Below, in pieces: positions 7,024-57,750 of a stretch of 64,000 nucleotides of DNA. The notes beneath the pieces are model-generated. The model was not told where the DNA came from, ran no database searches, and saw only the letters and a program-made list of their open reading frames with translations. The stretch comes from Ptychodera flava (taxonomy: Eukaryota; Hemichordata; Enteropneusta; Ptychoderidae): contig NC_091931.1 of NCBI RefSeq assembly GCF_041260155.1, forward strand, positions 25,860,654 through 25,924,653, read 5' to 3'. Positions within the stretch are counted from its first letter, which is position 1; each line of letters opens with the position of its first letter. The position numbers and the translations under genes were made by a program.

Positions 7024-10000
7024 ATGAAGAATTCTACGCTGACAGTCATCGGTGCATGGCTCTTCATTTTACCTGCTTTCAGTCTGCATACGCATGCTAC
7101 GCCTAACACAGGCGACAGAGAAGACATTTGGGACCGATCTAAGTATGCATACTGTTCCGGGGATATTAGAGAGCCTGCTAGGCCCGCTGTTGACGTTGGA
7201 TGGAATCACTATCGGCAGTTGTACTTTCTCACCGGATATTACCTCCAAATTTTCCCGGATGGAACTTTGAGGGGAACAGGGGACTACAACAACAAGTATG
7301 GTACGTTTCGGGAACCTCATCTTACCAGATCTGAAAGTATAAGACTCATCTCATTTCTTGATTTTATAATTATTGTACGATAGGATTTGAATCCCAAATA
7401 CATCATGGGCGTGATAAGCTTAATCTCTCTTGGTATGTTGTTTTTATCGCCCCAGCTACTAAAGGTGTGGCAACGACTGTGATTCGACAGTCGCCTGCTT
7501 TAAAAGGCAGAAAAAAGGGAGCGTTTGATATTTCAAAAGACGAACTTGTCCCCATGAGACATTATAATTATATTTTAGGACACAACAAGTCAATAATAAT
7601 GTTAGTGCGGACAAAGTACAACGGTGGCTCGAAATATCTTACAATATGACTACATTTCGCCCCGCGTCAGAAACCATACCGCAATAACAGGTCGGTTTTC
7701 ATTGGCCCACCAGTGTTAGCTGGCTGAACCCTTGGCCGTTGTGCAGGAATCTTTAAGCTTCCGGGCAATCCCATGCCCGGAAAAGCCGGAAAAGCAGGGA
7801 TAGGGGAGAGATCAGTCTGAGGGATGACCTCTTGACCTCCAACACAGGTGGCACTGTATCGACGTTTCCAGTCAGATATAACCACATGTACTTACTTTGT
7901 ATTATTTTTTATTCGGAGTAGCACCATGTCAATGACAACTCACAACAACAACCACCACAACCATCATACATCAGTAGCAGCAGCAGCAGCAGCAGCAGCA
8001 GCATCAGCAGCAGCATCATCATCAGCAGCAGCAGCATCAGCAGCAGCATCATCATCATCACTCTATCACCATCAACATCACTATTTGCATGCTTGAAAAT
8101 ACATGTTGTGACAAGTGTACAAGAAATGTCACTACAGGTTTTAAAGTACAAAGAATGTCTTGTGGATACTCCATGGTTGAGTTAATTAGAATTAGGGCAA
8201 CGCGTCTATGTTCAAGTGAAATAGTATGATAACCAAACACGCTGCAAGAGGGTCAAAAGTTCATAAATTTTACAACTTGTTATGAAACAAAGGCATGACA
8301 TTTTAAAGTCGCCCTCAAACGTTGAGTTCAGGTCGGTGGTTTCGATACGTCATCAGTGATGTAAAAAACCGATACTGCCTACATTGCTCGTCTGAAAGGA
8401 TTGGTGGAAATGAAAGCAGATTTTGATGGCATTGCATGGGAATAGGAAATATGCAGATCACATGTGTTTCCTATGAATAACTTACATAAACTCATCACTC
8501 AAACAAACTAAAATTGAAGAAACCCTGGCCAATAAGAGTCAATTGAAACTGGGCACAAATTTACACTAAAATGTGTTCGTGGCCCATGAGTTCTCTGTGG
8601 TAACGATGTTGGCTGACTACGGACGACAAACGAGTACGCATGCGTGGGCAAGTACGTCTGACTTCAGTGCAAGTGCGACACAACAATCGTTTCCCGGGAA
8701 AATTCAGTGATCACACATGGCTCAACATTAAAAATTTTCTGCAAGATTAAAGAATTCTATGTCCATACAAATCAATGTTATCATAGCGTGTTCTGATTTT
8801 AATAACAATCAGAGGACCTTTATATCCGATTTATCTGCATCTATTTGCTTTTTGCTTACAAAAATATCACCAAATCTTCTCAGTGGGTGGTTTTTTTGAA
8901 ATTTCGTTATTCAGCCATATTGTCAATGAAAATATCACTATTTCAATCCTGGTGATTTATTTGGATGGAAAAAACATTCAGTGGTAACATATCGGTAAGC
9001 ACTTTTACATAAGTTGCATTTGATATCAAACACGGTTACGCTACCCCCTTGGGTACAGTAAACATCAAACCATCTTATTTCAAACCATCTTATCGCGTAA
9101 ATGCAAACTGATACAGCTAACGGTGCTTCAAACAAAGTTTCATAAGAGAGGCCAATGTTCGGTCAGACACTTTCAACCAAATAATCTGTCATTTTATCAT
9201 TTCGACAGCTATAGTATATATAATTGAAGTTAAGCCGCCCTCCTCCATTGTAGCAATAAGAAGTATTGTGACTGGGTTGTACCTCGCTATGAACAGGCAA
9301 GGAAAGCTCTATGCATCGGTGAGTGTTGAAATATTCATTTTTGAGCTTTAGTCTTCACTTCATTACATGCTATGTGCCAGCCATTTTGTACAAAAGAGAC
9401 ACGTATCCACCTCAGACTTGTCCAGCAATCGCGAACTTGTGACGATTTCGTCCTGTTTGTCTGGATCAGAGTTGAGATACCATTCGTCTGTAGCCACAGT
9501 TCATTCCTCAATGTGTGAAATGATATCTAATTCCTACAATAATGTCAAAGTACATGCATCCATGTTTTCAGTTTTCTTGTACGTTTTATTATCAGCCATA
9601 TTGTCCAAGCGAACTTTTACATGACTGTAAGGCTCTGTCCTCGTACGGAAATTTCACCTTCCTATGTCTTACAAGTATTACAAGTTGTTACTATAGCTTG
9701 TTAAGAGTTATTTGTGATGTTTAGGTCCTGACGTTAATTTTCCTCAGCTGGTGACACCGACATGCGATGTGATAACCGTGGAATCTGCATCACTATCTCG
9801 CGGCAAAAACTGCTACCTGGCGAAAGATTCATGACAGTCCAGTAGACACTGATCTCACAAAGTCTATTGTCATATCTTTGTCCGCAGAGTTTTCTTAACA
9901 AGAATTGCTGGTTTCTGGAAAATGTCACCCGTTACGGAATGAATGCGTACGCATCGGCAAAATATCCAGTCAAGAGGAACGGAAAACGCGAGAAAAGAAA

Positions 10001-10130
10001 TGAGAAATTTTGGTTCGTAGCTGTGAAGGGCAGTGGTAAACCGTCGTTGGCGGCGCTGTACAAACCTAACAGGGACCGCGTAAAATTTTTAATTCGACGT
10101 CCTGTTTACCCCGAGAAACTCTTTAGCTAA
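7024..10130 (+). CDS. Fgf: FGF-A, secreted fibroblast growth factor (FGF9/16/20-like), 209 aa
   Basis: Exons 7024-7300, 9209-9318 and 9888-10130. Donors are gtacgt and gtgagt; acceptors are gacag and gcag. Intron phases are 1 and 0, as in canonical FGFs. I chose the start [12 protein letters not shown] because it aligns with FGF-B and begins a hydrophobic signal peptide (about residues 6-21). An in-frame upstream ATG at 6907 is less likely. The trefoil core begins HYRQLY (about residue 62) and continues LQIFPDGTL, then VAIRSIVTGLYLAMN and GKLYAS in exon 2, and NCWFLEN, YASAKYPV, KFWFVAV, VKFLIRRPVYPEKLF in exon 3. The expected ligand role is FGF-receptor activation with heparan sulfate. It is the most diverged of the four: the early Cys (LYC in the others) is Phe, and the FPNGT glycosylation site is PDGT. 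It reads as an intact gene, so divergence of function is possible. Confidence 0.9.
7970..8082. repeat. (CAG)n/(CAT)n trinucleotide repeat in FGF-A intron 1
   Basis: Mixed CAG and CAT triplets. FGF-B intron 1 has a CAT tract at the corresponding place (21541-21700). Open frames giving poly-Ala/Ser or poly-Met/Leu are artefacts. Confidence 0.95.
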
Positions 10131-57700: not shown

Positions 57701-57750
57701 ATCGCCGTGGTAGTGCTGGCACTAAAAATACCCATAATACAAGCAGTCAT
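51784..57750 (-). CDS. Fgf: FGF-D, secreted fibroblast growth factor (FGF9/16/20-like) with Lys/Arg-rich insertion, 256 aa
   Basis: Exons on the minus strand: 57408-57750, 54099-54205 and 51784-52104. Donors are gtaata and gtaagc; acceptors are gacag and cacag. Phases are 1 and 0. The signal anchor or peptide is AMIAVIYLLIGLAGA (about residues 16-30), followed by a 55-residue linker with an NST site. The core opens YRQLYCRSGYHLQIFSDG (about residues 85-102). Exon 2 gives TMAIRGVASGYYLAMNKKG and LYAS. Exon 3 gives PDCYFLEG, then a very basic insertion (residues 179-207, 23 of 29 Lys/Arg), HWYVAFDSKGKPQKG, KMTHFLARPVDIKKVQGLY and a short tail. The end closely parallels FGF9 (THFLPRPVDPDKVPELY), so this is the most canonical C-terminus of the four. 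The basic loop may strengthen heparan-sulfate binding or act as a nuclear or nucleolar signal (inference). It is oriented opposite to the other three. Confidence 0.93.
52249..52260. promoter_or_regulatory. Palindromic CRE in FGF-D intron 2
   Basis: The 12-bp palindrome GATGACGTCATC contains a full CRE. A further TGACGTCA is at 56233-56240 in FGF-D intron 1. Function is inference. Confidence 0.25.
54261..54410. repeat. (GA)n microsatellite = (CU)n upstream of FGF-D exon 2
   Basis: About 120 bp of GA with few interruptions, fading into GGGA. In the FGF-D transcript it is a (CU)n tract ending about 55 nt before the exon-2 acceptor. Confidence 0.95.

What the first reader, a model, noticed from the sequence alone, without database searches (positions are those of the whole stretch)
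7024..57750. Four-member FGF cluster of FGF9/16/20 type
Four complete FGF genes lie within 51 kb, each with the canonical three coding exons and identical phases (1, 0). Their core phrases ([26 protein letters not shown], FLPRxVDPxKV) point to one FGF9/16/20-type ancestor. Vertebrates keep single dispersed members of this group, so a local expansion with strong divergence of loops and C-termini suggests lineage-specific ligand diversification, possibly with shared enhancers in the long spacers.
Basis: partly seen in the sequence, partly recalled or inferred. Interest (0 to 1): 0.85.

Follow-up and report, generated by a model that had tools for sequence, protein, structure and literature searches.

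The report
Four clustered acorn-worm FGF genes
Four intact growth-factor genes of the FGF9/16/20 type sit side by side in the genome of the acorn worm Ptychodera flava; they are one hemichordate family made by old and newer local duplications, and their sequences hint that the copies differ in how they bind the sugar coat of cells.

Summary
Four intact three-exon FGF genes lie at 7024-57750, all introns GT-AG with phases 1 and 0, and tblastn found no fifth FGF exon. The source is the acorn worm Ptychodera flava: gene 3 equals a database protein, gene 4 equals one over 240 residues, gene 2 is nearly identical to one, and gene 1 has no close entry. Trees put all four, with one Saccoglossus and one Glandiceps protein, in a single clade. 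Genes 1+2 are a young duplicated segment, gene 3 groups with the other species, and gene 4 (opposite strand) branches first. So the expansion mostly predates P. flava (exclusive clade rejected, p=0.0017). FGF9/16/20 is the nearest vertebrate subfamily, but the trees do not prove membership. Hemichordate FGF9/16/20 duplication is already published for Saccoglossus (PMC3420111). Not found in my paper searches: the physical cluster, gene 1, and a contrast in which genes 1-3 lost a conserved heparin-loop glycine while gene 4 keeps it and adds a 31-residue insert with 23 K/R.

The parts
7024..7300 (+). FGF gene 1 (G1), exon 1, from ATG; phase 1 donor
9209..9318 (+). G1 exon 2
9888..10130 (+). G1 exon 3 to stop; 209 aa protein with no close database entry
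19537..19801 (+). FGF gene 2 (G2), exon 1
22518..22624 (+). G2 exon 2
23219..23455 (+). G2 exon 3 to stop; 202 aa, nearly identical to P0002 'FGF16-like [Ptychodera flava]'
6734..10048 (+). Copy A of the segmental duplication that holds G1 (matched in blocks to 19173-23379)
19173..23379 (+). Copy B of the segmental duplication, holding G2
29897..30161 (+). FGF gene 3 (G3), exon 1
36587..36693 (+). G3 exon 2
37684..38001 (+). G3 exon 3 to stop; 229 aa, identical to P0001 'FGF9-like [Ptychodera flava]'
57408..57750 (-). FGF gene 4 (G4), exon 1 (alternative start M17 at 57702)
54099..54205 (-). G4 exon 2
51784..52104 (-). G4 exon 3 to stop; 256 aa, residues 17-256 identical to P0003 'FGF9-like isoform X2 [Ptychodera flava]'
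51934..52026 (-). 31-residue basic insert of G4, 23 of 31 residues K or R

Best explanation
This is a hemichordate FGF ligand cluster of P. flava. A single hemichordate FGF gene, most likely the FGF9/16/20 ortholog, was duplicated locally before the lineages of Ptychodera, Glandiceps and Saccoglossus separated. It gave a gene 4 lineage (now on the minus strand) and an array lineage that split into the gene 3 type and the gene 1/2 type; a later segmental duplication made genes 1 and 2. Each gene encodes a secreted beta-trefoil ligand that presumably works through FGF receptors. Shown here: gene structures, common clade, order of splits, G1/G2 segment, N-terminal hydrophobic stretches. Inferred: that the early duplications were local, secretion, receptor signalling, subfamily identity, and the functional division (gene 4 held tightly by heparan sulphate, genes 1-3 more weakly).
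For: Intact genes with regular splice sites and phases; FGF domain in 4 of 4; three of four match P. flava database proteins. Hemichordate clade in 4 of 4 builds; G1+G2 100/99, 99/99, 100/99 in the three builds that held G1; gene 4 outside the rest of the clade in 4 of 4 builds (97/95, 91/90, 99/92, 99/96). Window genes as an exclusive clade rejected, p=0.0017; gene 4 with vertebrate FGF9/16/20 alone rejected, p=0.017. Best vertebrate blastp matches are FGF9/16/20 for all four; PDB sequence searches with G3 and G4 rank FGF9 and FGF20 first (G1 and G2 not sent). The C-terminal pattern VDPxKVPxLY is full in G3, partial in G2, G4 and G1, near-full in Saccoglossus and Glandiceps, and not seen in the rows of other subfamilies that reach that far (several PDB-derived rows end before it). 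AlphaFold2 models of P0001 and P0003 match FGF9 structures first. G1/G2 share upstream and intron DNA with dN 0.306 and dS 0.956, so the pair is on balance constrained. PMC3420111 (passages) counts three FGF9/16/20 genes in Saccoglossus, which fits the three old lineages seen here.
Against: The tree cannot place the hemichordate clade among vertebrate subfamilies. The vertebrate FGF9/16/20 profile scores FGF10 (149 bits), FGF13 (142) and FGF7 (140) about as high as G4 (150) and G3 (146), and far above G1 (87.5). The N-termini carry a signal-peptide-like stretch that three vertebrate FGF9/16/20 proteins lack. No echinoderm, amphioxus, tunicate or protostome FGF, and only one of the Saccoglossus FGFs, was in the trees; 72 of the 192 hits were not listed. 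Inside the gene 3 group Saccoglossus sits closer to P. flava than Glandiceps does, which does not fit the species relations I recall. Searches with G4 alone and G1 alone returned no Saccoglossus or Glandiceps protein, though those searches need shared 5-letter words. The database gene 2 protein lies on a different contig (13.99 Mb) from the gene 3 and 4 proteins (50.6 Mb), so the linkage of G2 should be checked in a second assembly. Genes 1-3 as an exclusive clade are only borderline rejected (p=0.051).
Confidence: 0.72

Rival explanations
1. Two or more ancestral deuterostome FGF genes already lay together: gene 4 would be the FGF9/16/20 ortholog, and genes 1-3 a separate hemichordate subfamily from another ancestral FGF.
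For: Gene 4 keeps the FGF9-like heparin loop and has the highest profile score and lies on the opposite strand; it sits on a long branch (0.94).
Against: Gene 4 alone with vertebrate FGF9/16/20 is rejected (p=0.017), and so are genes 1-3 and relatives with FGF9/16/20 without gene 4 (p=0.019); 4 of 4 builds keep gene 4 in the hemichordate clade.
Confidence: 0.12
2. A recent, P. flava-only expansion.
For: Genes 1 and 2 do share a younger duplicated segment.
Against: Gene 3 groups with Saccoglossus and Glandiceps proteins, and the four genes as an exclusive clade are rejected, p=0.0017.
Confidence: 0.05
3. The clade is derived from another FGF subfamily (for example FGF11-14 or FGF7/10) and resembles FGF9/16/20 only through slowly changing positions.
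For: AU tests do not reject those groupings (FGF12/13 p=0.323, FGF7/10 p=0.086), and the profile test does not separate them.
Against: Pairwise scores favour FGF9/16/20 for all four genes (best 92.8, 123, 134 and 134 bits for G1-G4 against 72.4, 89.7, 83.2 and 87.4 for the best other subfamily); the C-terminal pattern is shared only with FGF9/16/20 among rows that reach it.
Confidence: 0.13
4. Gene 1 is decaying or not expressed rather than a fourth working ligand (this can be true alongside the best explanation).
For: No close database protein; it has lost the conserved Cys of the YC motif and part of the C-terminal motif; more unique changes than G2 with G3 as outgroup (28 against 12, chi2 6.4), though not with G4 (15 against 18).
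Against: Open frames and intact splice sites; dN below dS for the G1/G2 pair (0.306 against 0.956).
Confidence: 0.2

Closest known systems
Hemichordate FGF9/16/20 duplicates of Saccoglossus kowalevskii (FGF9-like, FGF13-like, FGF20-like; Oulion et al. 2012, PMC3420111, passages)
   Same: Same phylum; hemichordate-specific multiplication of an FGF9/16/20-type gene; gene 3 groups with the Saccoglossus FGF9-like protein
   Different: Physical clustering is not mentioned in the passages seen; the other two Saccoglossus proteins were not available for comparison; P. flava has a G1/G2 split
P. flava fgfa, fgfb, fgfc, fgfd and fgf8/17/18 (Fan and Su 2015, not seen; as cited in PMC6091094 and PMC8180256, passages)
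   Same: Same species; five ligands with different embryonic expression patterns; PMC8180256 says some arose by duplications within Ambulacraria; some or all of genes 1-4 may be among fgfa-d
   Different: Which of genes 1-4 equals which of fgfa-d could not be determined; the word scaffold does not occur in PMC6091094
Vertebrate FGF9, FGF16, FGF20
   Same: Best non-hemichordate matches; C-terminal VDPxKVPxLY pattern
   Different: Dispersed single genes (recalled); no strong N-terminal hydrophobic stretch in the three tested; keep the loop glycine lost in genes 1-3 (12 of 12 rows)
Other neighbouring FGF duplicates: amphioxus FGF3 and FGF4/5/6 (PMC3420111, passage); vertebrate FGF3/FGF4/FGF19 and Drosophila pyramus/thisbe (recalled)
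   Same: Local FGF duplication giving neighbouring ligands
   Different: Other subfamilies; independent events

Membership tests
FGF family | FGF (beta-trefoil) domain above the curated cut-off | tested here: met
   4 of 4 proteins, 98 to 124 bits against cut-off 24; models of P0001 and P0003 match FGF structures
FGF family | Three coding exons with conserved intron positions | tested here: met
   4 of 4 genes, phases 1 and 0; that this layout is usual for FGFs is recalled
FGF9/16/20 subfamily | Best match among vertebrate subfamilies is FGF9/16/20 | tested here: met
   4 of 4 in blastp against 12 FGF9/16/20 and 10 other FGF rows; G3 and G4 in PDB sequence search (G1 and G2 not sent)
FGF9/16/20 subfamily | Clade with vertebrate FGF9/16/20 to the exclusion of other subfamilies | tested here: inconclusive
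   Held together p=0.386, but several rival groupings are also not rejected
FGF9/16/20 subfamily | Subfamily profile scores members above other FGFs | tested here: not met
   G4 150 bits against FGF10 149; G3 146, G2 132, G1 87.5. I treat this as a weak criterion: the profile was made of vertebrate sequences only
FGF9/16/20 subfamily | C-terminal VDPxKVPxLY pattern | tested here: inconclusive
   Full in G3, partial in G2, G4 and G1
FGF9/16/20 subfamily | No classical N-terminal signal peptide (recalled trait of vertebrate members) | tested here: not met
   Most hydrophobic 12-mer near the N-terminus 2.26 to 2.89 in G1-G4 against 1.15 to 1.39 in three vertebrate proteins; hydropathy only, no signal-peptide program
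FGF9/16/20 subfamily | Gene order shared with vertebrate FGF9-MICU2 or FGF20-MICU3 loci | tested here: inconclusive
   A possible MICU-like first exon lies 2.3 kb from gene 4, but the similarity is weak
FGF9/16/20 subfamily | Receptor preference and heparin-dependent dimerisation | not testable with these tools
   Needs purified protein

The most novel reading that the evidence does not exclude
The cluster is a ligand kit with divided ranges. Genes 1-3 and their Saccoglossus and Glandiceps relatives have lost the second glycine of the heparin loop, which in this alignment is otherwise missing only in the endocrine FGF19 (the FGF21 row ends before it), and so would bind heparan sulphate weakly and diffuse far, while gene 4 keeps the loop and adds a 31-residue basic insert that would pin it near its source. 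Hemichordates would then have evolved weakly heparin-bound FGFs, independently of vertebrates, by duplication from an FGF9-type ancestor within one locus.
Probability: 0.2. Interest if true: 0.65.

Novelty: new member of a known kind. Interest (0 to 1): 0.4.

Why it matters
The subfamily identity of several hemichordate and echinoderm FGFs has been uncertain (PMC3420111 and PMC8180256, passages). A physical cluster with a clear order of splits ties four ligands to one ancestral gene, gives a simple reading of the three-gene count in Saccoglossus, and offers linked paralogs in a species where FGF signalling is already known to be needed for mesoderm formation (PMC6091094, abstract and passages). 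If the heparin contrast is real, it would show ligand range evolving within one locus.

Tried and rejected
Own-genome search: no genome is held for this window. A fifth FGF exon: none by tblastn. RNA families and tRNAs: 0 hits each.

MICU neighbour idea. Vertebrate FGF9 and FGF20 lie next to MICU2 and MICU3 (recalled; MICU3 and FGF20 appear together in a cattle region list in PMC7601430, table passage, and EFHA2, an older name of MICU3, in the chicken FGF20 region in PMC3464622, passage). The window has a candidate first exon at 60086-60301, divergent from gene 4, reading like a mitochondrial presequence plus membrane stretch. Against my recalled MICU3 it scores z=3.2 (1.1% of 2000 shuffles as high), against MICU2 z=1.8 and MICU1 z=0.7; the PDB search gave 0 hits, and neither tblastn with recalled MICU2/MICU3 nor a motif scan showed a later MICU exon. 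Kept as a lead only.

Profile of vertebrate FGF9/16/20: does not discriminate. Gln-Lys of the heparin loop: I first took its loss in genes 1-3 as a special feature, but FGF4, 10, 12 and 13 also lack the pair, and genes 1-3 keep other basic residues nearby, so only the glycine is used and the odds of the bold reading were lowered from 0.25 to 0.2. Shared upstream elements between G3 or G4 and the other genes: none in 500 bases. Noncoding blocks of G1/G2 look more alike than fourfold sites (30 of 56 identical against about 70% and 75%; p=0.025 and 0.004), but the blocks were chosen because they match and the counts came from rounded percentages, so I claim no regulatory constraint.

Papers. Searches that bear on an earlier report of the cluster: (one search was malformed; two searches were about MICU and FGF20). 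I saw passages of PMC8180254, PMC8224027, PMC8180256, PMC3420111, PMC7601430, PMC3464622 and PMC11175523, and the abstract, outline, passages and methods section 8 of PMC6091094; no whole text. FGF occurs 0 times in the main text of PMC11175523. Fan and Su 2015 itself was not seen; my memory of its abstract was used only as a lead.
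Full report
What is there. The window holds four complete FGF genes. From the raw sequence I fixed every exon: G1 + 7024-7300, 9209-9318, 9888-10130; G2 + 19537-19801, 22518-22624, 23219-23455; G3 + 29897-30161, 36587-36693, 37684-38001; G4 - 57750-57408, 54205-54099, 52104-51784. All eight introns are GT-AG, first phase 1 and then phase 0, and the proteins are 209, 202, 229 and 256 aa. Pfam FGF is found in 4 of 4 with 98 to 124 bits. A tblastn of all four against the window found no other FGF exon.

Where it comes from. A search of about 5.8 billion proteins with the alignment of the four gave 192 hits, of which the best 120 were listed: 5 hemichordate and 115 others, which by their listed species are vertebrate. 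Gene 3 is identical to P0001, FGF9-like of Ptychodera flava; gene 4 is identical over residues 17-256 to P0003, FGF9-like isoform X2 of P. flava; gene 2 differs from P0002, FGF16-like of P. flava, at 5 of 202 residues by eye. Gene 1 has no close entry; its search returned P0002 alone, at 53%. P0002 is listed on a 13.99 Mb contig, P0001 and P0003 on a 50.6 Mb contig. The published assembly paper notes high heterozygosity (PMC11175523, passage), so an allele or haplotype contig is one possible reason, but I could not check it.

How the genes are related. Trees were built from the four genes, the Saccoglossus and Glandiceps proteins, 12 of the 115 vertebrate proteins and 11 FGFs of other subfamilies taken from printed PDB alignments (29 rows), and in three variants (18, 26 and 27 rows). 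In 4 of 4 builds the hemichordate rows form one clade (99/97, 100/100, 96/90, 97/97; in the 18-row build the only other rows were FGF9/16/20). G1 and G2 pair in the three builds that held G1 (100/99, 99/99, 100/99). G3 groups with the Saccoglossus and Glandiceps proteins (94/88, 93/89, 98/93; 92/66 with Glandiceps alone in the build without Saccoglossus and G1). Gene 4 branches outside the rest of the clade (97/95, 91/90, 99/92, 99/96). AU tests reject the four window genes as an exclusive clade (p=0.0017), gene 4 with vertebrate FGF9/16/20 alone (0.017), and the rest with FGF9/16/20 without gene 4 (0.019); G1-G3 as an exclusive clade is borderline (0.051). These groups were named after the first tree was seen. 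Gene orientation fits: the three plus-strand genes are the inner group and the minus-strand gene is the outer one. Gene 4, Saccoglossus and G1 sit on long branches.

The younger duplication. Self-comparison of the window shows that G1 and G2 lie in matching segments, 6734-10048 against 19173-23379, in five blocks of 69 to 84% identity. By piece, the 190 bases upstream are 70% alike, exons 67 to 78%, matched intron pieces 68 to 87%, while flanks further out fall to 46% and 51%, near background. NG86 gives dS 0.956 and dN 0.306, so the duplication is not very recent. G1 has more unique changes than G2 with G3 as outgroup (28 against 12) but not with G4 (15 against 18). The 500 bases upstream of G3 and G4 share nothing detectable with the others, so I see no sign of shared enhancers; the long spacers themselves were not tested.

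Is it FGF9/16/20. For: every gene's best non-hemichordate blastp matches are FGF9/16/20, PDB sequence searches with G3 and G4 rank FGF9 and FGF20 first, and the C-terminal VDPxKVPxLY pattern is shared, in full or in part. Against or neutral: the AU tests do not separate FGF9/16/20 (p=0.386) from FGF12/13 (0.323), FGF8/18 (0.265), FGF4 (0.225), FGF1/2 (0.136) or FGF7/10 (0.086); only FGF19/21 is rejected (0.040). A profile from the 115 vertebrate sequences scores FGF10, FGF13 and FGF7 about as high as G4 and G3. The six hemichordate proteins have a strong hydrophobic stretch near the N-terminus (12-mer means 2.1 to 2.9), unlike the three vertebrate proteins tested (1.15 to 1.39). I therefore call it FGF9/16/20-type, most likely orthologous, not proven.

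How it probably works. Secreted ligands acting on FGF receptors is inferred from the family. AlphaFold2 models with 25-row alignments (20 of the 25 rows vertebrate FGF9/16/20; mean pLDDT 67.3 for P0003 and 72.7 for P0001) match FGF9 structures best, which such an alignment favours. In the sequence alignment the second glycine of the loop after the WYVAF-like strand is present in G4, in 12 of 12 vertebrate FGF9/16/20 rows and in 9 of 11 other rows (FGF19 lacks it; the FGF21 row ends before it), but is absent from G1, G2, G3, Saccoglossus and Glandiceps. The Gln-Lys further along is also missing in those five, but equally in FGF4, 10, 12 and 13, so it tells little; and the five keep other basic residues there. 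That this loop is the heparin site, and that endocrine FGFs bind heparin weakly, is recalled. G4 in addition carries a 31-residue insert (window 52026-51934) with 23 K or R. The asparagine of the NTY motif (a receptor contact, recalled) is kept in G4 and G1 and replaced in G2, G3, Saccoglossus and Glandiceps. These contrasts suggest different tissue retention and perhaps receptor use; nothing here tests it.

What is already known. Oulion et al. 2012 (PMC3420111, passages) counted six FGFs in Saccoglossus, three of them FGF9/16/20 orthologs, and concluded a hemichordate-specific duplication. P. flava was reported to have fgf8/17/18 and fgfa-d, with different expression patterns (PMC6091094, passages), and PMC8180256 states that some hemichordate ligands come from duplications within Ambulacraria (passage). 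Three old lineages plus one later G1/G2 split is consistent with the Saccoglossus count of three. Searches showed me no report of the physical cluster or of gene 1, but most subscription papers, Fan and Su 2015 among them, were out of reach.

Verdict. A real, intact cluster. The P. flava-only reading is wrong for most of it. The expansion is of a known kind; the physical arrangement and the heparin-loop contrast look new and testable.

Noticed in passing
60086-60301 (+): Candidate first exon reading as a mitochondrial presequence plus membrane stretch, followed by a donor site, head-to-head with gene 4; weak resemblance to recalled MICU3, whose gene neighbours FGF20 in vertebrates.
   Followed up: partly
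1192-2059 (-): Fragment of a SPRY-domain gene, resembling the SPSB kind by eye; Pfam SPRY is below its cut-off (16.3 of 26.3 bits).
   Followed up: partly
12651-13681 and 16321-17667: Two arrays of a roughly 349-base satellite repeat in opposite orientation between genes 1 and 2.
   Followed up: no
25314-25669, 33683-34031, 36728-37072, 47176-47522: Interspersed repeat of about 350 bases, 73 to 81% alike, in both orientations; one copy lies inside the second intron of gene 3; partial copies near 20809-21068.
   Followed up: no
29032-29429 and 40631-40946: Long TACA/ATGT tetranucleotide arrays.
   Followed up: no
15056-15421 (-): Open frame that by eye resembles a piece of a reverse transcriptase; Pfam gave no support.
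   Followed up: partly
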